Assembly: GCF_025150745.1 (NCBI RefSeq)
Contig: NZ_CP102282.1
Coordinates: 2,367,501-2,431,500, forward strand
Reading direction: 5' to 3'
Origin: Eubacterium ventriosum
GTDB taxonomy: Bacteria; Bacillota; Clostridia; Lachnospirales; Lachnospiraceae
Length of the DNA: 64,000 nucleotides
Part shown: positions 54,107 through 64,000 of the stretch, in pieces
Layout of the letters: every line of letters begins with the position of its first letter
Position numbering within the stretch: position 1 is the stretch's first letter
Made by a program: the position numbers and the translations under genes
Notes under the pieces: generated by a model
What the model was told of the DNA's origin: nothing
The model's database searches: none
Seen by the model: the letters and a program-made list of their open reading frames with translations, nothing else

Positions 54107-54403
54107 TTCACTGCTCAGTATGTTTCACAGGCATGGCGTGAAGCCACCAAAAACATGCAACGCAGTTATTCACATAAAGGTTATCCTTATGACAATGCCT
54201 GTATTGAATCCTTCCATTCACTCATAAAAAGGAAATGGCTTAACCGTTTTAACATTAAGAATTACAGACACGCATACAACCTGATTTTTGAATACATCGA
54301 AACCTTTTATAACACTGTCAGAATTCATAGTCACTGTGATTACATGTCACCTGATGAATTTGAAAAAATGTATGAGAGGGTTAAATCTCTGCCGGTTGCT
54401 TAG
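54107..54403 (+). pseudogene. C-terminal fragment of an IS3-family transposase (integrase core)
   Basis: The frame reads TAQYVSQAWREATKNMQRSY, SHKGYPYDNACIESFHSLIK and ends with the typical FYNTVRIHSHCDYMSPDEF tail. This is the last third of an IS3-group OrfB with its final catalytic Glu (IESFHS). OrfA and the first DDE residues are missing. Downstream, GTGCTAAATCTTGACATAGCAC (54430-54450, in two halves GTGCTA/TAGCAC) looks like the old IS end. The relic lies next to the retron end. Confidence 0.85.
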
Positions 54404-54520: not shown

Positions 54521-55507
54521 TTAAAACTTTTGAGTATTGCCACATCCATACAGCCATTCCTTGTATTCTCTCATTTCTTCATTATCTTCTACCGATAATA
54601 CATAGTTAATCCTTCCCATTAAAGAGTTAATATACTGTTCTGTTGATATTTCCACATCAATATCAATGTCAATTTGTCCTTTTAATGCATCTGATAATTG
54701 CCTGCTTTTCTTTTTTAATACTGAATGTTTCATATGGTTCTCTATTCCATATTTTTTACAATAATATATTTCCTGTCTTATTTCTTTCTTATATTTTCTT
54801 GGTGCTGAAAGTTTTTCATTTACAATAATTCCTGTAACATTCTTTGACTGTCCTGAATGTAAATATGTTGTCTTTCTGTTGTTTATATAGAACCCCATCT
54901 TTCTAAGTTCTGATTCTACTTTTTCAATTACAGGTTCTTTATCGAATTTTCCTGAAAAAGTCATATCATCACAGTAACGCGTATAATTAATGTTGCGTTC
55001 CTTGCACCAATCTCCTATTTCTTTATCAAAATCTCTCATAATTATGTTAGATATATCAGGTGATGTCGGTGCTCCCTGGGGAATACTATGTTCATACACA
55101 CATAAAATGCTTAATAGTATTCTAATGGGTTCTGAAAAAATGTCTGGTTTGAAAACTTTTTCTTTCACCATTGGATACGTAATATTATCAAAAAAATGTC
55201 TGATATCAAGTTTTAGTATGTTCTCAGCTCCAACGTGTACTTTAGCATTATTCACTATTCCCTCACCTCTAATATAGGCTGTTGCATAAATTGATGTAGG
55301 CATTTTTCTTAAAATATAAAATCTAATTTTTCTTTGTATTGATTTAAGATTGTCTTTCGGAACATGTAATGTTCTGATTTCTCCATTATTTTTCATAATT
55401 TCTACAGTTTTATAGTTTGAAAAAATATTTCTACTAAACTTGTATAATACCTTGCGTGGAATACGTATGTCCTTTTCAAGTGTTGATAAATCTTTATAAT
55501 ATACCAT
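54521..55507 (-). CDS. Retron-type reverse transcriptase
   Basis: The 328-residue RT has the bacterial retron marks. NNAKVH (86-91) is the NAxxH motif preceding the first catalytic Asp (ILKLDIRHFFDNI, Asp101). QGAPTSPDISN (144-154) is motif 4. NYTRYCDDMTFSG holds YCDD (178-181), where most retrons have YADD. VTGII (224-228) is the VTG motif. The C-terminal thumb is short and no extra domain is fused. A structured 197-nt element with matching ends lies directly upstream, the place for msr-msd. AAAGGAG lies about 10 nt before the ATG. The protein would copy the msd part into RNA-linked DNA. Confidence 0.9.
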   Translation of the reverse strand: MVYYKDLSTLEKDIRIPRKVLYKFSRNIFSNYKTVEIMKNNGEIRTLHVPKDNLKSIQRKIRFYILRKMPTSIYATAYIRGEGIVNNAKVHVGAENILKLDIRHFFDNITYPMVKEKVFKPDIFSEPIRILLSILCVYEHSIPQGAPTSPDISNIIMRDFDKEIGDWCKERNINYTRYCDDMTFSGKFDKEPVIEKVESELRKMGFYINNRKTTYLHSGQSKNVTGIIVNEKLSAPRKYKKEIRQEIYYCKKYGIENHMKHSVLKKKSRQLSDALKGQIDIDIDVEISTEQYINSLMGRINYVLSVEDNEEMREYKEWLYGCGNTQKF

Positions 55508-57624: not shown

Positions 57625-58860
57625 TTAATTATCTTCTAAGCACTTAATCCTTGCCACTTTTCCCCAGGATGGATTTACCTTTTCATTATTAAGTAGCCAA
57701 ATTACCGGTATCCCCATTGCTTCACTTTCTTTTGGAAATGGTGCATATCCGTCTGTCAAAATTATTATACTAACTGGAAGATTATCTGTCATATATTCTT
57801 TTACATAATTAAATATAATTTGAAAGTTTGTCCCCCCTCCACCTATTGCCTTTATCATCTCAAATTCTTCTTCATTTTCAAAAGGTACTGGTTCAATTAC
57901 TACTGCATCAAAAAATCCAAGCATTCCGATTAATTTTCCGTTGAACTGTTCAATTGCGCCCTTAACCTCTGAATATGCTGCAGTTACCATATCATCCTTC
58001 ATTGATGCTGATGTATCAATCATAAAAAGAATATTTTCAGGTTTAATGTCTTTATCATTAAAATCCGGTAGAAAAAAGGGGCAATCATCAAACCTTCTAT
58101 CAGGTGGCATAAATGAATAATCCACAACCTCCTCCTGTAAAAAATCTATTAATATTTCTCGCCAATCTGTTTGTGCATTTTTTAATTCTTTTAGTCTACG
58201 TTGAGCGAAAGCCGGCATTGTTTCTCTATTTATAATAGAATCTCTTATTTCTATTGTTTTTGACACTTCATCTAATCTACTAATCCATAGTTCTTCCAGC
58301 TCTTCATTCTTTTCTATTTGTTGCCATTTTGTGTGATTGTCAATTATATTAGTAGTATTTTTTGTTTTTCCATTACTTTGAAGCTTTGCGTTATTCATCC
58401 CCAGATTTTTCTGCAACATATTATATACTTCTTCAGCAGTGTACTCATATCCTTCTTTTCCATTTGGAGCAAGATGCATTGCTTCACCATCACTTCTAAG
58501 AGTTATTGTTCTTGTGTCCATATTATTTGACAAAAGAATATTAGAATTTACTACTATATCGCAAGCAATATTGTATAGTTCTTTTTCCAACTCTCTTCCT
58601 CTAAAACAATGTTGCAATGCCACGTGAAGAATCTCATGCATCATAATAAAATCAAGTTCATCGTCATTTAACTCATCAAGAAATTTAGGATCAAATCTTA
58701 TAACCTTACCATCTGTATATGCTGTTCCACATTCTGCATCCAAACCATATTTCATATGCATAAGTAAAAGTCCATAAAAGCCATTGTTACAAAGTATTCT
58801 CATTTTGGATAGCATCAATCTTTTTGTATATTCTTTAATTTTGTTACTTGATAACTCCAT
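57625..58860 (-). CDS. Metallopeptidase-like/VWA-like protein (DUF2201 family)
   Basis: The 411-residue protein has an N-terminal zincin-like domain with MMHEILHVALQHC (HExxH at 75-79) and a second domain that is VWA-like. The latter has the MIDAS ILFMIDTSASMKDD and a later Thr/Asp in IIILTDGYAPFP. This architecture pairs with MoxR-type ATPases, as here, where its start overlaps the end of the ATPase gene by 17 bp. MoxR-VWA pairs act as chaperone or remodelling units. The peptidase role is not proven. Confidence 0.85.
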   Translation of the reverse strand: MELSSNKIKEYTKRLMLSKMRILCNNGFYGLLLMHMKYGLDAECGTAYTDGKVIRFDPKFLDELNDDELDFIMMHEILHVALQHCFRGRELEKELYNIACDIVVNSNILLSNNMDTRTITLRSDGEAMHLAPNGKEGYEYTAEEVYNMLQKNLGMNNAKLQSNGKTKNTTNIIDNHTKWQQIEKNEELEELWISRLDEVSKTIEIRDSIINRETMPAFAQRRLKELKNAQTDWREILIDFLQEEVVDYSFMPPDRRFDDCPFFLPDFNDKDIKPENILFMIDTSASMKDDMVTAAYSEVKGAIEQFNGKLIGMLGFFDAVVIEPVPFENEEEFEMIKAIGGGGTNFQIIFNYVKEYMTDNLPVSIIILTDGYAPFPKESEAMGIPVIWLLNNEKVNPSWGKVARIKCLEDN

Positions 58861-59974
58861 TTAAAATCTTCCCCTTTGCTGATAACCACTTGGCAAAGTC
58901 AGGTATTGCCATTAACTTACGTTTATAATCTTTTTCAATATACATATAATCTTTCATCAACACCACACCAAAATCCGGTGGTAACTTTTCAGCGTATCTT
59001 ATTGAGTTAGCTATTTTTGTTATTTCCTCTTTATGTTCTTTTGCATAGCTTGTCATTGCTGCTGTTAAGGCATACAGGACATCAGGGCTTTTTGGTACTC
59101 TGGGTCGAAGTCCATTAAATATGTCATCCATATCCGGTAACTGATTATACACATTGCACCACGTCCTAAATTCAACTGCAACTCCTGTCCCTACAAGTCC
59201 TGTAATTAATGGATATACTTCTGACACATCATCATTAATATTATTTAAAATATTACTAACCATCTCCCATGAACGTGGTGTACTAAATGCTAGGTCTTCT
59301 GATTTTGCATCGAAGTTCATCAAATAATTTCTTCTAAAAGATAAGAACCCTATTACTTTGTCATTTACTCCCGATTTGATTGCCCACTCTTTCCATGAAT
59401 CAAAGTTGTCTTCAACTTCTATATGTAAAAGTCTGTTTGCAAGTGCCTTTGGCATTTTAAATGCAACTGATTTATCTGTCACCCTGTTACCTGCAGCTAT
59501 AACAATGCAATTATCCGGAAGTTTATGTTCTCCAACAACTCTGTCAAGAGTAATTTGATATGCTGCTGCCTGTACCGATTGTGGTGCGGCTGATATTTCA
59601 TCTAAAAATAAAATATTTACAATATCATCACTTGAATCCATCTGGAATATCTGTGGCTTTAGCCATATTGCTAATGTTTTGTCAGCATTTGATGTTGGTA
59701 TACCTCTTAAATCAATCGGATTAAATAACAGTAATCTTACATCTGTAACAACTGATTTCTTGCCTGTTCTTTCTTCTATCTCTTTTGCAATCTGTCTTAC
59801 AGCCTGAGATTTACCCACCCCGGGTGGTCCCCACAGCATAACCGACGGCATAATCTTAATTGGCTTTTTGTTATTAATTAATACACTATATGAATCTGCT
59901 AATAATTCTGTAATTCTACCAACATCCATCTGTGGGATGTTAGCAAGTTTTATATCTTTTACTCTATTTTCCAT
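58844..59974 (-). CDS. MoxR-family AAA+ ATPase
   Basis: The 376-residue AAA+ protein has Walker A GPPGVGKSQAVRQ (from residue 49), Walker B VNILFLDEISAAPQ, sensor 1 NCIVIAAGNR and an Arg-finger region near ALANRLLHIEVED. It is the ATPase half of a MoxR/VWA pair. It overlaps the helicase gene upstream by 11 bp and the VWA gene downstream by 17 bp, so all three are coupled. Substrate unknown. Confidence 0.87.
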   Translation of the reverse strand: MENRVKDIKLANIPQMDVGRITELLADSYSVLINNKKPIKIMPSVMLWGPPGVGKSQAVRQIAKEIEERTGKKSVVTDVRLLLFNPIDLRGIPTSNADKTLAIWLKPQIFQMDSSDDIVNILFLDEISAAPQSVQAAAYQITLDRVVGEHKLPDNCIVIAAGNRVTDKSVAFKMPKALANRLLHIEVEDNFDSWKEWAIKSGVNDKVIGFLSFRRNYLMNFDAKSEDLAFSTPRSWEMVSNILNNINDDVSEVYPLITGLVGTGVAVEFRTWCNVYNQLPDMDDIFNGLRPRVPKSPDVLYALTAAMTSYAKEHKEEITKIANSIRYAEKLPPDFGVVLMKDYMYIEKDYKRKLMAIPDFAKWLSAKGKILNGVIK

Positions 59975-62900
59975 TATTATTTACTCCTAACTTTTCATCT
60001 AACTCTTCTACCAGTTTCCTGTAATGATTAATCTGATCATAAAAGTTTTCATCTTTTGAAAGGTTTGTTTTTATGTCTCTAAGTTTTGTTTGTTGCTTTT
60101 CCAGTGATTCTTCCAATTCTTTCAAATGGTCATTTAAATTGTTTAGGTAATTATCAATTCTTACCAAATTACCTACTTCTGTATCTCCTAGTTCAACATA
60201 ATACCTTCCATTGTTTTGCAGCCATACATATGGTTTTTCAGATTTCATATTTGTAGGAAGAATTATGTCAAACCCTCTGTATTTTATGAATTTTCTCTCT
60301 TTTGTTTCTAATACATTCTCCTTAATTGCCTGGTGAATCGTAGTTCTAATAAACTTTCTTTCCTCTACCAATTTTTTCTTTTCATCATTGTTTTTCGGAT
60401 TCGGATATTTCTTATTCCACTTTTTAACAAATTCTATGTCGTCTACACATTTACTAATAATGTCCTTTTGATGTTTAATCTTTCCCGGAAGCTCCATAGC
60501 TTCTTTTTCCCATGCAATCCTTGCCTCAACATATTTTCTTTGAAGAATTTTGTATTTGGTCAGTTCATTGTACGCCTCAACTCTGTCCTTAACTAATGGA
60601 TTTCCCACTGCCAAAGCTTTTACTTCAGCATAATCAAGAACTGAATCTTCAATATCACTTCCACTTCTTTCAACCAAAGATCCTGCTAATAGTTCAGAAA
60701 TAAATCTTTGCTTTGTTTCCAACAACTGCCAAGAATAAGCATCAAAACTGCCTTCTGTAATATAACGATAAATTTCAACCTCTTGATTAATATTGCCCTG
60801 TCGCAAAATACGACCTTCTCTTTGAACCATATCTGCCGGGCGCCATGGCACATCTATATGGTGAAGGGCAATCAGTCTATCCTGAATATTTACTCCCATC
60901 CCTATCTTAAAGGTAGAGCCTAGAATTACTCTGATTTTACCTTTTCGAACATCATCAAATAGTTGTTTTCGCTTCTTTTCTGTATTAGCACTATGCGCAA
61001 AAGCAATTTCATTTTCAGGTATTCCCAAATTTTTAAGTCTGACTTTTATGTCATCATAAATATTAAAACCTTTCTTTGGAGTTGAATAATCGCAAAATAT
61101 AACCTGTGTTAATCTATCTTTCATTGTTCTAAAATAAATATTGGCTACATTCTCTACACATCTTCCGACCTTACTTTGACATCCTACTGATAGTGACGAG
61201 TCAACTAATCTCATATCCAATGCAGCTTTTCTTCCATCTGTTGTAATCTTTAGCATATTGTCAACTGTCCTTAAAACCGCCCCCATTCTGACTGCCTCTG
61301 CTCTTTTGCTAATTTCTTCTAAATATTTCTTTAAATCATAACTTTTAGATATTAGTGCATCTTTGTAGCCATTATGTTTAGGAATGTTTTCTGCACCATC
61401 TACCTGATGAAAATCTGCAATTGACGCAAGCAAGGTAGTTAACTCCGGCAAATTATGAAATCTTGAAAATCTGGTTGTAATTCTATAAGAACTTGTATCC
61501 ACATCAATTTCAAACTCTGTATTTTTTTCAGCAAACATTCCAATCCAACCATCAAAATGTTGCAAATCAAGTAATCCTAACTCTCCATTCTGCAAATATC
61601 TCTGCATAATATAAGCATCTGTAATAGAATTAGTTATTGGTGTTCCTGTTGCTAAAATTACACCTCCACCGTTTTTTTGAACACATTGAACTTTATGAAA
61701 CATTTCTTCACACTTCTTTGATCCTTTAGGATTAAGCCCCATTACATTACCAATCTTAGTATCAAAAGGAACATTCTTAAAATTGTGAGCTTCATCAACA
61801 AATAATTTTGTTACTCCCATATCTTCAAAATATACTCCATCATAATCAACTTCCTGTGCTACTGTTAGTTTTCCAAGTTCTTCTTTTATCTTTTTAATCT
61901 CTCTGTCAATTTTCCTAGGATATTGTAAATTGTTATTTTTTTCATTCTCCAATTCTGCTTTTTTTGTTTTTAATCTTTCTATCCTATAATCTACTGATAA
62001 TTTAATACGTTCAAAACAACTGTAAGCAATAATTATTCCATCGTAATCCTCATCTCTAATCTCTTCCATTACCTGTTTCCTGTTAATTGGTTTGAAAGTC
62101 TTGGGCTCAATTGTTAAAAGTTTTGCATTAGGATACATTTGTTCAAAAATATCTTTCCATTGACCAACTATATTATTGGGAACAACATACATATTTTTAT
62201 TAGAAATTCCCATACGTTTCATTTCCATTCCTGCTGCAATCATTGCATATGTTTTACCTGAGCCAACATCATGGGCTAATAATGTATTCGGTGTGAATAT
62301 CATTCTTGCCACTGCATCCTTCTGATAAGGATAAAGTTGAATTTCAGAGGACATATTGGGAAAAGTCAAAAATGAACCATCAAAATTTCTTTTTCTGTTA
62401 CTTCCATATTTTTGATTATAAATTTGTTCAAGCAGATTTTTTCTTTTATCGCTTTTCCACACCCACTTTTTAAAATATGCAATCATTTGATTTTGTTTTT
62501 CCTGTGCTTCTATTGTTGCCTGCTCATCAATTACCCTCTTCTTTCCTGAACTGGTTGTTGTACTTGGAATTGTTTTATAAACTGCAACCGGTTTCATATT
62601 CAACGTATTTTCTAATATTTGTATGCTATTAACCTTCTCCGTACCATATGGACCTTCTATATAAGTAGCCCAACTCAAAAAAGACTTATCAACAATTTCC
62701 CAAACGCCAAGTTGTTCATTATGCACTGTTAATTCCTGTGTTGCTTTAAGGCGATACATTTGGCTAATAAAAGAATCAATTATCTCTGTAGGAATCCATG
62801 GAGAACCCAGTGTTATGTAAATCTCTTCGAAATCAATATATTCAGGAAACACTTTCTCTATTGCTTCAATATTATCGTTAAAATATCCCTTGTATTTCCT

Positions 62901-63236
62901 ATTATTCTCTACAGCCACAGCATATTTGTCATATAAATTACCTGACAAATACTCTTCTGCCGTCTCCCATCCCTTGTAAAAACACTCTTCCCAGGTTCTA
63001 GGATTCTGATATATCGAACCTTTTAAAGTTTCAATAACCGTCTTATATCTTTCTCCTGTAATAGCTGCAATGTATTCAATATCAACATGACCCAAATTAG
63101 AAAGACTAAGTATAAGTCCATCTGAAATACTATCAGCATGAACTCCAACTGTTGCAGGACTGGAATCAAAAATATTCTCCCAATCAATCGGCAAATCCAT
63201 ATGTGTTACATCTTTTATATTCTTTCCTTCTTCCAT
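59964..63236 (-). CDS. Large SNF2-type DEAD/DEAH helicase of mobile-element type
   Basis: The 1090-residue protein has an N-terminal region of about 290 residues typical of plasmid/ICE helicase-methylase proteins. SF2 motifs follow: Q-like YPYQKDAVARM (302-312), Walker A HDVGSGKTYAM (GSGKT 325-329), DEAH at 481-484 and ILATGTPITNS. The second RecA lobe has LGSTFKIGMGVNIQDRLIALHH and VQREGRILRQGN. A coiled, charged C-terminus ends it. The DNA-methylase domain found in many relatives (LtrC/YeeA-like) is absent. It is coupled to a MoxR/VWA pair and follows a PcfJ-like gene, indicating an integrated conjugative or phage-derived island. Confidence 0.88.
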   Translation of the reverse strand: MEEGKNIKDVTHMDLPIDWENIFDSSPATVGVHADSISDGLILSLSNLGHVDIEYIAAITGERYKTVIETLKGSIYQNPRTWEECFYKGWETAEEYLSGNLYDKYAVAVENNRKYKGYFNDNIEAIEKVFPEYIDFEEIYITLGSPWIPTEIIDSFISQMYRLKATQELTVHNEQLGVWEIVDKSFLSWATYIEGPYGTEKVNSIQILENTLNMKPVAVYKTIPSTTTSSGKKRVIDEQATIEAQEKQNQMIAYFKKWVWKSDKRKNLLEQIYNQKYGSNRKRNFDGSFLTFPNMSSEIQLYPYQKDAVARMIFTPNTLLAHDVGSGKTYAMIAAGMEMKRMGISNKNMYVVPNNIVGQWKDIFEQMYPNAKLLTIEPKTFKPINRKQVMEEIRDEDYDGIIIAYSCFERIKLSVDYRIERLKTKKAELENEKNNNLQYPRKIDREIKKIKEELGKLTVAQEVDYDGVYFEDMGVTKLFVDEAHNFKNVPFDTKIGNVMGLNPKGSKKCEEMFHKVQCVQKNGGGVILATGTPITNSITDAYIMQRYLQNGELGLLDLQHFDGWIGMFAEKNTEFEIDVDTSSYRITTRFSRFHNLPELTTLLASIADFHQVDGAENIPKHNGYKDALISKSYDLKKYLEEISKRAEAVRMGAVLRTVDNMLKITTDGRKAALDMRLVDSSLSVGCQSKVGRCVENVANIYFRTMKDRLTQVIFCDYSTPKKGFNIYDDIKVRLKNLGIPENEIAFAHSANTEKKRKQLFDDVRKGKIRVILGSTFKIGMGVNIQDRLIALHHIDVPWRPADMVQREGRILRQGNINQEVEIYRYITEGSFDAYSWQLLETKQRFISELLAGSLVERSGSDIEDSVLDYAEVKALAVGNPLVKDRVEAYNELTKYKILQRKYVEARIAWEKEAMELPGKIKHQKDIISKCVDDIEFVKKWNKKYPNPKNNDEKKKLVEERKFIRTTIHQAIKENVLETKERKFIKYRGFDIILPTNMKSEKPYVWLQNNGRYYVELGDTEVGNLVRIDNYLNNLNDHLKELEESLEKQQTKLRDIKTNLSKDENFYDQINHYRKLVEELDEKLGVNNNGK

Positions 63237-63330
63237 TGTTTTTGTTCCTCTCTTGTGTAAATAGTATAAGAAAAGCCATGGGATATTTTTATCTCATCCT
63301 TTTTATACTCTATTTTTTATTTAAGGAACT

Positions 63331-64000
63331 TTATCTTATTTCTCCAAAATTATATTCCATTTGCAAATAATTATTTCTAAGTATTCCGTGTCTGTCACAA
63401 TAATCATTTATTAATTTCATCTCTTGTTCTGTACATTTTCTATTATTCTTACCATATGCTTCAAATAGCACGTATCTATTTTCACGATTGCATACTACAA
63501 TAGTTATATATGGCTGTTCTATATTGTCGCTTTTTCTCATAAACAAAATTGTCCTTTTGCAGTCGATTATATTGTTCAAATACAGTGTTGGTTCATCATC
63601 CATATAAACATTGTTCTTGCATAACTCATCTACTGTTTTTGGATATTCAATTGTAATTCCATTACATTCTTCATACCATTTATTTCCACGCATTTTATTT
63701 GATTGTTCTATTTTTTTATTTATCTTTTCTTTGTCTTCAAAAAGAATCTTATTTAACTCTTTTGCTCTTTCTAATTTCAATTCTGGTCTGCAGTAGCCTA
63801 TAAGTGCTCTTTTTAAATATTTCTTATATATGACATCTGTTTTTTCAATTTTTGCACATATTATGACAAATTCCATTTTGTCTTTTGTATCTTTTTGATT
63901 TATAAGAATATCTACCTGTTCTTCATTCCATAATTGACTTAATTTTTCACTAAATGAAAAAAATATATTTTCAATATCTTCACAGATAAAATATGTATTT
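63331..64000 (-). CDS. PcfJ-like protein (partial, 5' end beyond window)
   Basis: The frame is open to the window edge, so at least 222 residues. The C-terminal part has TLYLNNIIDCKRTILFMRKS and YITIVVCNRENRYVLFEAYG followed by NNRKCTEQE. This is the PcfJ domain pattern (ILF-RK-D-P-Y-I-V...G-NN-T-E) found on conjugative plasmids and phages. Function of the family is unknown. A Met at 63876 is an internal residue in an unbroken frame rather than the obvious start. The gene ends 94 bp before the helicase start. Confidence 0.72.
   Translation of the reverse strand, partial: NTYFICEDIENIFFSFSEKLSQLWNEEQVDILINQKDTKDKMEFVIICAKIEKTDVIYKKYLKRALIGYCRPELKLERAKELNKILFEDKEKINKKIEQSNKMRGNKWYEECNGITIEYPKTVDELCKNNVYMDDEPTLYLNNIIDCKRTILFMRKSDNIEQPYITIVVCNRENRYVLFEAYGKNNRKCTEQEMKLINDYCDRHGILRNNYLQMEYNFGEIR

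What the first reader, a model, noticed from the sequence alone, without database searches (positions are those of the whole stretch)
57625..64000. Coupled helicase, MoxR ATPase and metallopeptidase/VWA operon in a mobile island
Three genes overlap by 11 and 17 bp: a 1090-residue SNF2-type helicase lacking the methylase found in relatives, a MoxR AAA+ ATPase, and an HExxH plus VWA protein. A PcfJ-like gene precedes them and a DUF262 nuclease follows after 29 bp. A helicase tied to a MoxR-VWA chaperone pair suggests a nucleoprotein-remodelling or defence machine I do not recognise.
Basis: partly seen in the sequence, partly recalled or inferred. Interest (0 to 1): 0.62.

Follow-up and report, generated by a model that had tools for sequence, protein, structure and literature searches.

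The report
Helicase–unfoldase–peptidase three-gene bacterial machine
Three tightly overlapping bacterial genes (a DNA-tracking motor, a ring-shaped protein-remodelling ATPase and a zinc-peptidase partner) travel together as one unit through many gut Clostridia; I found no description of this set, and it looks like an uncharacterised machine for stripping proteins from DNA, most likely a defence against mobile DNA.

Summary
On the minus strand lie a 1090-aa SNF2 helicase, a MoxR AAA+ ATPase and an HExxH+VWA protein, overlapping by 11 and 17 bp, with a PcfJ-like gene upstream and a DUF262/GmrSD gene 29 bp downstream.

The trio is a real unit. In all 75 loci with enough upstream DNA (best 80 of 361 hits in 84,980 genomes) the three genes occur in the same order and strand with conserved short overlaps. 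Their distances co-vary (Mantel r 0.72-0.84), dN/dS is low, and near-identical trios sit among unrelated neighbours.

The helicases form one clade, separate from helicase-methylase fusions of plasmids, ICEs and phages. MoxR groups with giant-phage MoxR. None of 89 loci carries recognisable transfer or integration genes, so the ICE-module reading is not supported. WYL regulators, known to accompany defence systems, are enriched nearby (36 vs 0 in control DNA). In the window the trio sits beside a GmrSD gene and a retron RT.

I read it as an undescribed three-component nucleoprotein-remodelling system, probably anti-mobile-element. The closest published kind is the MoxR-vWA ternary conflict system, here with an SNF2 translocase as third component. 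Defence activity is inferred, not shown. "Mobile island" is unproven.

The parts
59964..63236 (-). Stand-alone SNF2/SWI2-type helicase/translocase, 1090 aa, no methylase domain
   Evidence: Pfam SNF2-rel_dom 1.7e-8, Helicase_C 1.5e-10; PHROG 'DarB-like antirestriction' 2.5e-251 over the helicase part only; motifs GSGKT, DEAH, TGTPITNS, QREGRILRQGN conserved; AlphaFold2 model matches Mot1, ISW1, Snf2
58844..59974 (-). MoxR-type AAA+ ATPase, 376 aa, overlaps helicase by 11 bp
   Evidence: Pfam AAA/AAA_3; phrog_1297 2e-96; Walker A GPPGVGKS and FLDE Walker B conserved; 75/75 trio loci
57625..58860 (-). Zinc-metallopeptidase-like (HExxH) plus VWA domain protein, 411 aa, overlaps MoxR by 17 bp
   Evidence: Pfam DUF2201_N 7.6e-29, DUF2201 3.1e-13; H75, E76, H79 and MIDAS D282, S284, S286, D370 invariant and T344 at least 90% in 51 relatives; VWA domain 272-411 Z 13.7 to an integrin I domain
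63331..63999 (-). PcfJ-like protein (C-terminal part; full protein 344 aa runs to window-equivalent 64365), variable accessory
   Evidence: PHROG 1e-10, Pfam PcfJ 2.8e-4, below cut-off; PcfJ-like genes also directly follow the trio in L080, L082 and L118
55634..57595 (-). GmrSD_N/DUF262 protein 29 bp downstream, probably a separate type IV-restriction-like defence gene
   Evidence: Pfam GmrSD_N 2.6e-25; similar genes next to the trio in only a few other loci (L055, L078, L113), so not part of the core
54521..55507 (-). Retron-type reverse transcriptase (Ec107-like), neighbour, not part of the trio
   Evidence: PADLOC RT_Ec107-like 7.4e-125; another Ec107-like RT adjoins the trio in L070

Best explanation
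The trio is an autonomous three-component nucleoprotein-remodelling system. Proposed mechanism: the stand-alone SNF2 motor translocates on double-stranded DNA of an invader (phage or plasmid) or on stalled nucleoprotein. Through physical coupling it delivers DNA-bound proteins to a MoxR AAA+ ring, whose partner, the VWA protein, holds substrates through its MIDAS metal site. MoxR unfolds the substrate and the N-terminal HExxH peptidase cleaves it, so that replication or transcription complexes on the foreign DNA are dismantled. Expression is often placed under WYL regulators. Shown: the conserved operon, domain content, intact catalytic motifs, purifying selection, co-inheritance, separate clade, absence of a methylase, absence of transfer genes, WYL enrichment. 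Inferred: physical complex, DNA as the track, proteolysis, the invader as target, and a defensive outcome.
For: Conserved unit: 75/75 testable loci in the same order and strand; most helicase/MoxR junctions overlap by 4 bp and most MoxR/VWA junctions by 14 or 17 bp. Co-inheritance: Mantel r 0.84/0.72/0.76, 0 of 999 permutations. Purifying selection: dN/dS well below 1 in six close pairs for all three genes, at most about 0.25 in a seventh. Intact active sites in 51 VWA and 41 helicase sequences. Moves as a unit: helicases 86-90% identical with no shared flanking genes (L058, L061 and L065 against L060); 2 of 23 genomes of the genus and 9 of 391 of the class carry the MoxR or VWA. Not ICE cargo by default: 0 of 89 loci with recombinase, relaxase or VirD4 seeds. 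Defence-like context: WYL genes 36 vs 0 in ~0.94 Mb of flanks vs 0.96 Mb of control, and BrxR-family WYL regulators co-localise with phage defence systems (PMC9122601); GmrSD and Ec107-like retron beside the window trio; AbiE, CARF-HEPN, retron and GmrSD among sampled flank genes, while the control showed mainly generic models. MoxR-vWA pairs with a variable third component are published as predicted counter-invader systems (PMC7159879, PMC8195603). Helicase fold closest to Mot1/SNF2 remodellers, and ZorD of Zorya also appears.
Against: No experiment. Many neighbours are stress/RNA-repair genes (RtcB, TROVE-like, metallophosphatases) or housekeeping, so the island signal is mixed. WYL regulators also control non-defence stress responses (PMC10693628). 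One member (G112) has lost the HExxH glutamate (HLLLH), so peptidase activity may not be universal. No nuclease or obvious toxin is in the trio. The helicase lineage derives from proteins used by mobile elements themselves (PMC5512222), so it could serve the element rather than the host.
Confidence: 0.5

Rival explanations
1. A host stress or repair machine: the trio clears proteins from stalled or damaged nucleoprotein (RNA polymerase, replication blocks, DNA-protein crosslinks) after DNA/RNA damage, comparable in role to RapA/Mot1 plus a SprT/SPRTN-like protease, under WYL control.
For: Helicase model closest to Mot1 and SNF2 remodellers; DUF2201_N region has a weak SprT-like match (5.5e-4); recurrent neighbours are RtcB, TROVE-like DUF2828/DUF7788 proteins, metallophosphatases, SpoVK-like and FtsH-like AAA+ proteins; WYL regulators also act in DNA-damage responses (PMC10693628, PMC11804915).
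Against: Very patchy distribution (about 2% of Clostridia; 2 of 23 in the genus), unlike a core repair function; flanks exchange while the trio stays.
Confidence: 0.25
2. A mobile-element-derived anti-restriction or establishment module: the helicase is a split-off part of the ICE/phage DarB-like polyvalent protein and the trio helps incoming elements overcome host defences or process proteins on transferred DNA.
For: Full-length homology at 35-39% to helicase-methylase fusions of conjugative plasmids, ICEs and phages; PHROG label DarB-like antirestriction; PcfJ genes occur near both; polyvalent proteins combine SNF2, methylase and metallopeptidase (PMC5512222).
Against: No methylase, the part thought to protect DNA; distinct clade; none of 89 loci with transfer or integration genes; only 2 trio-type hits in 2.9 million viral contigs, both on recombinase-bearing fragments.
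Confidence: 0.15
3. A virion-assembly or tail-maturation remnant: the MoxR + metallopeptidase-vWA pair came from giant phages, where it is proposed to process structural proteins, and persists as prophage debris.
For: Same pair in Bacillus phage G (50% identical MoxR) and jumbo/N4-like phages; trio MoxR is sister to giant-phage MoxR; published proposal of virion assembly for the phage pair (PMC7824862).
Against: Strong purifying selection and a constant helicase partner absent from the phage pairs.
Confidence: 0.05

Closest known systems
MoxR-vWA ternary conflict systems (VMAP, iSTAND, TERNS3; Kaur et al. 2020, PMC7159879; PMC8195603)
   Same: MoxR AAA+ and vWA chaperone-cochaperone pair plus a third large component in one operon; peptidases can be fused to the vWA; predicted counter-invader role
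   Different: Third component is an SNF2 translocase, not VMAP/iSTAND/TERNS3; peptidase is N-terminal to the vWA; no C-terminal effector; found here in Clostridia rather than mainly in multicellular bacteria
Jumbo-phage MoxR + N-terminal metallopeptidase-vWA pair (PMC7824862)
   Same: Same two proteins with the same domain order; sister clade in the MoxR tree
   Different: Phage pairs lack the helicase and are proposed to act in virion assembly
DarB-like SNF2 helicase-adenine methylase polyvalent proteins of ICEs, plasmids and phages (PMC5512222)
   Same: Homologous helicase over ~1000 residues at 35-39% identity
   Different: Those are 1800-4400 aa fusions with an Eco57I-type methylase; the trio helicase is ~1100-1250 aa, lacks it, and forms its own clade
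NorQD / RavA-ViaA MoxR-VWA chaperones
   Same: MoxR AAA+ hexamer working with a VWA MIDAS protein to remodel a protein target (PMC9976466, PMC13036017; abstracts only)
   Different: They insert metal or act on respiratory complexes; no helicase and no fused HExxH peptidase
DISARM (DrmD), BREX, Zorya (ZorD) helicases
   Same: SNF2-type motor inside a multi-gene defence operon; partial HMM or structure matches
   Different: Matches only in the helicase core and far below curated cut-offs; partner genes (methylase, PLD, PglZ, ZorAB) absent

Membership tests
MoxR-vWA ternary conflict system | Adjacent MoxR AAA+ and vWA genes | tested here: met
MoxR-vWA ternary conflict system | Third component of VMAP, iSTAND or TERNS3 type | tested here: not met
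   Third gene is an SNF2 helicase; no such domains in Pfam, PADLOC or NCBIfam hits
MoxR-vWA ternary conflict system | Effector domain fused C-terminal to the vWA or on an adjacent vWA-L gene | tested here: not met
   VWA ends the protein; the peptidase is N-terminal
DarB-like polyvalent helicase-methylase | Homologous SNF2 helicase module | tested here: met
DarB-like polyvalent helicase-methylase | Adenine methylase in the same protein or gene neighbourhood | tested here: not met
   No methylase domain in this helicase; methylase seeds found in 0 of 89 trio loci; relatives have it
DarB-like polyvalent helicase-methylase | Carried by a conjugative element or phage | tested here: not met
   No transfer or integration genes near 89 trio loci or in the window
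Jumbo-phage MoxR-metallopeptidase-vWA pair | MoxR next to DUF2201_N-vWA, monophyletic with phage forms | tested here: met
DISARM | DrmD-class helicase at curated score plus methylase and PLD partners | tested here: not met
   DrmD 52.6 bits vs cut-off 610; no partner genes in the operon
Anti-phage defence system | Reduces phage infection or foreign DNA entry | not testable with these tools
   Needs plating and conjugation assays
Anti-phage defence system | Enrichment near known defence genes or their regulators | tested here: inconclusive
   WYL strongly enriched, retron and GmrSD in the window; other defence families only sporadic

The most novel reading that the evidence does not exclude
A previously undescribed class of bacterial immune machine in which an SNF2 DNA translocase feeds proteins bound to foreign DNA into a MoxR AAA+/VWA metallopeptidase, destroying invader nucleoprotein rather than nucleic acid.
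Probability: 0.3. Interest if true: 0.85.

Novelty: new variant of a known kind. Interest (0 to 1): 0.62.

Why it matters
If right, it would be a defence or quality-control machine that couples DNA tracking to protein unfolding and proteolysis, a combination for which I found no described system. Even if the role is stress response, a conserved, independently spreading helicase-unfoldase-peptidase operon in gut Clostridia has no assigned function and is small enough (5.6 kb) to clone and test. It also links a protein pair so far discussed only as giant-phage assembly factors to a chromosomal operon.

Tried and rejected
(1) ICE transfer module: rejected because 0 of 89 loci have transfer or integration genes and ICE helicases form another clade. 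(2) Known defence family: PADLOC, NCBIfam and Pfam gave only partial core hits for the helicase and MoxR. (3) Chromosomal DUF2201/AAA pair (23-30% identity, many Lachnospiraceae): a separate, distant lineage. (4) PHROG label 'HNH endonuclease' for the VWA family: no HNH match in Pfam; treated as a mis-annotation. (5) Locating island ends by comparison within the genus failed: flanking genes are too poorly conserved. (6) Rfam search of 53-64 kb found nothing credible. (7) Sequence search against PDB gave no relatives for MoxR or helicase and only a weak match of the HExxH region to MJ1213 (E 0.01). (8) The Foldseek/VIA searches mainly covered the VWA domain, so the fold of the peptidase domain was not tested. 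(10) The seed-based flank test has a selection bias because seeds came from the flanks themselves; only the WYL and AAA_lid_6 results (36 vs 0, 19 vs 0) are strong enough to lean on. (11) In the helicase tree the row labelled 'L218_fused' is G129, which carries the trio (my label error); with that corrected the trio is one clade.

Full report
Observation. The helicase (59964-63236, minus), MoxR ATPase (58844-59974) and HExxH/VWA protein (57625-58860) overlap by 11 and 17 bp, and a DUF262/GmrSD gene follows after 29 bp. Pfam confirms all domains except PcfJ, which is weak in Pfam and clearer in PHROGs. Upstream, beyond the window, the PcfJ-like gene (344 aa) is preceded by a 299-aa gene without Pfam match and a WYL regulator (WYL reading from BLAST against WYL-confirmed neighbours), all on the same strand. 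Downstream of the GmrSD gene is a retron reverse transcriptase of the Ec107-like type.

Is the trio a unit? A scan of 84,980 genomes with the VWA alignment gave 361 relatives; the best 80 were kept. In all 75 with at least ~1.8 kb upstream of the VWA gene, MoxR and then the helicase precede it on the same strand. Most helicase/MoxR junctions overlap by 4 bp and most MoxR/VWA junctions by 14 or 17 bp. Pairwise distances of the three proteins are strongly correlated (Mantel 0.84, 0.72, 0.76; 0 of 999 permutations). dN/dS is well below 1 for all three genes in six of seven close pairs and at most about 0.25 in the seventh. Catalytic motifs are intact: HExxH and MIDAS residues across 51 VWA proteins, helicase motifs across 41 helicases. 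One member outside that set (G112) has lost the HExxH glutamate. Two divergent trios (37-48% identity) sit in other chromosomal contexts (G175, G129).

Limits of that statement. The 80 loci were chosen for similarity to trio-type VWA proteins. More distant pairs exist without a helicase: in G539 and G454 MoxR and VWA stand alone, as they do in more distant Firmicutes pairs such as G792 and G976. The association is therefore complete within the trio clade but not for the wider pair family. The simplest history is that a MoxR-VWA pair acquired the helicase once; this is an inference.

Ancestry. The helicase is homologous over ~1000 residues to DarB-like helicase modules of phages and conjugative plasmids at 35-39% identity. 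Those are 1800-4400 aa proteins with an Eco57I-type methylase in front of the helicase. Trio helicases are mostly 1070-1360 aa without a methylase, and methylase seeds found no gene in the 89 loci. In a tree of 62 helicases the trio forms one clade with full support once a mislabelled row (G129) is corrected. The window's own genome also carries one fused-type helicase elsewhere (2221 aa, no MoxR or VWA beside it). The trio MoxR is sister to MoxR of Bacillus phage G and other giant phages and far from the chromosomal MoxR-VWA pair of the family. Phage pairs lack the helicase and were proposed to act in virion assembly (PMC7824862).

Distribution and context. The trio is patchy: 2 of 23 genomes in the genus have the MoxR and 9 of 391 in the class have the VWA. 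Near-identical trios can share no flanking genes (86-90% identical helicases, zero of 4 genes). None of the 89 loci has seeds for relaxase, VirD4, serine or tyrosine recombinase, whereas random control DNA contains some. Of 32 viral contigs with a related VWA, only two carry trio-type proteins, both with large serine recombinases; in one the recombinase gene interrupts the helicase. Nothing in the window or the next ~50 kb marks a conjugative or integrative element.

Neighbours. WYL regulators are the clearest partner: 28 of 80 loci within five genes, 36 genes against none in an equal amount of control DNA. BrxR-family WYL regulators co-localise with phage defence systems (PMC9122601), but other WYL proteins act in damage responses (PMC10693628). 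A 674-aa AAA+ protein with a CbbX-type lid recurs in 19 loci, and FtsH-like AAA+ proteases, RtcB, metallophosphatases and SLOG-like proteins occur at lower frequency. SLOG, NADAR and macro names are my reading of the sequences, not HMM-tested. Established defence genes (retron, GmrSD, AbiE, CARF-HEPN) are present but sporadic. This pattern is compatible with defence islands and with stress/repair islands.

Structure. AlphaFold2 gave a usable VWA model (pLDDT 80); residues 272-411 match integrin I domains with Z 13.7. The helicase model (pLDDT 77) matches Mot1, ISW1 and Snf2 remodellers, with Zorya ZorD also listed. Mot1 is known to strip TBP from DNA (general knowledge). The peptidase domain was not resolved by the fold search.

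Mechanism. Best supported: an SNF2 motor on dsDNA, coupled by operon and stoichiometry to a MoxR ring whose VWA partner carries a zinc peptidase, dismantles protein-DNA assemblies on foreign DNA. The operon, domains, selection, co-inheritance, separate clade and WYL link are shown; complex formation, proteolysis, target and defence are inferred. Rivals are a host stress/repair machine, an element-serving module and a phage-assembly remnant.

Comparison with known kinds. It works most like the MoxR-vWA ternary conflict systems (PMC7159879, PMC8195603), which pair MoxR and vWA with a variable third component and sometimes a peptidase. It is not a member as defined, because the third component and the effector position differ. 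I found no paper describing a SNF2-MoxR-VWA trio in seven full-text searches; subscription papers and preprints were not covered. I therefore rate it a new variant of a known kind, with defence activity untested.

Noticed in passing
window 54521-55507: Retron-type reverse transcriptase (PADLOC Ec107-like, 7.4e-125) two genes downstream of the trio; another Ec107-like RT adjoins the trio in L070. No Rfam match to its non-coding RNA was found.
   Followed up: partly
window 54155-54403: Short plus-strand ORF resembling the C-terminal end of an IS3-family transposase (my reading of the sequence, not HMM-tested), suggesting an old insertion beside the retron.
   Followed up: no
L131:4216-6893: In an IMG/VR contig a large serine recombinase gene interrupts the trio helicase near residue 800, with MoxR and VWA intact downstream; the trio helicase may be an integration target of a mobilisable element.
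   Followed up: partly
L085:10374-12395 and 18 other trio loci: A ~674-aa AAA+ protein with a CbbX/SpoVK-type lid recurs beside the trio in 19 of 89 loci (0 in control DNA); its unmatched ~430-aa N-terminal region has no Pfam hit. Possible accessory component.
   Followed up: partly
L256:6977-9434 and L260:1395-3850: MoxR-VWA pairs close to the trio type but without the helicase, in Clostridia; candidates for the ancestral two-gene state.
   Followed up: partly
L262:4517-11182 (G000:C1 ~376.5-383.2 kb): The same genome carries one fused-type SNF2 protein of 2221 aa elsewhere, without MoxR or VWA.
   Followed up: partly
PHROG phrog_1314; Bacillus phage G gp576 (L006:13404-14582): PHROG 1314 is labelled 'HNH endonuclease' and phage G gp576 bears the same name, but the family matches DUF2201_N metallopeptidase plus VWA; probably a propagated mis-annotation.
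   Followed up: partly
L132:5293-6855 and L261:15388-16872: TROVE-like DUF2828/DUF7788 proteins, and RtcB in five loci, occur near the trio, hinting at a link to RNA repair or stress.
   Followed up: partly
L172:5923-12801 (Thermus oshimai plasmid pTHEOS01): MoxR-VWA pair followed by a 747-aa protein and a UvrD-type helicase, with a RecQ-type helicase upstream; perhaps an independent pairing of MoxR-VWA with a different helicase class.
   Followed up: no
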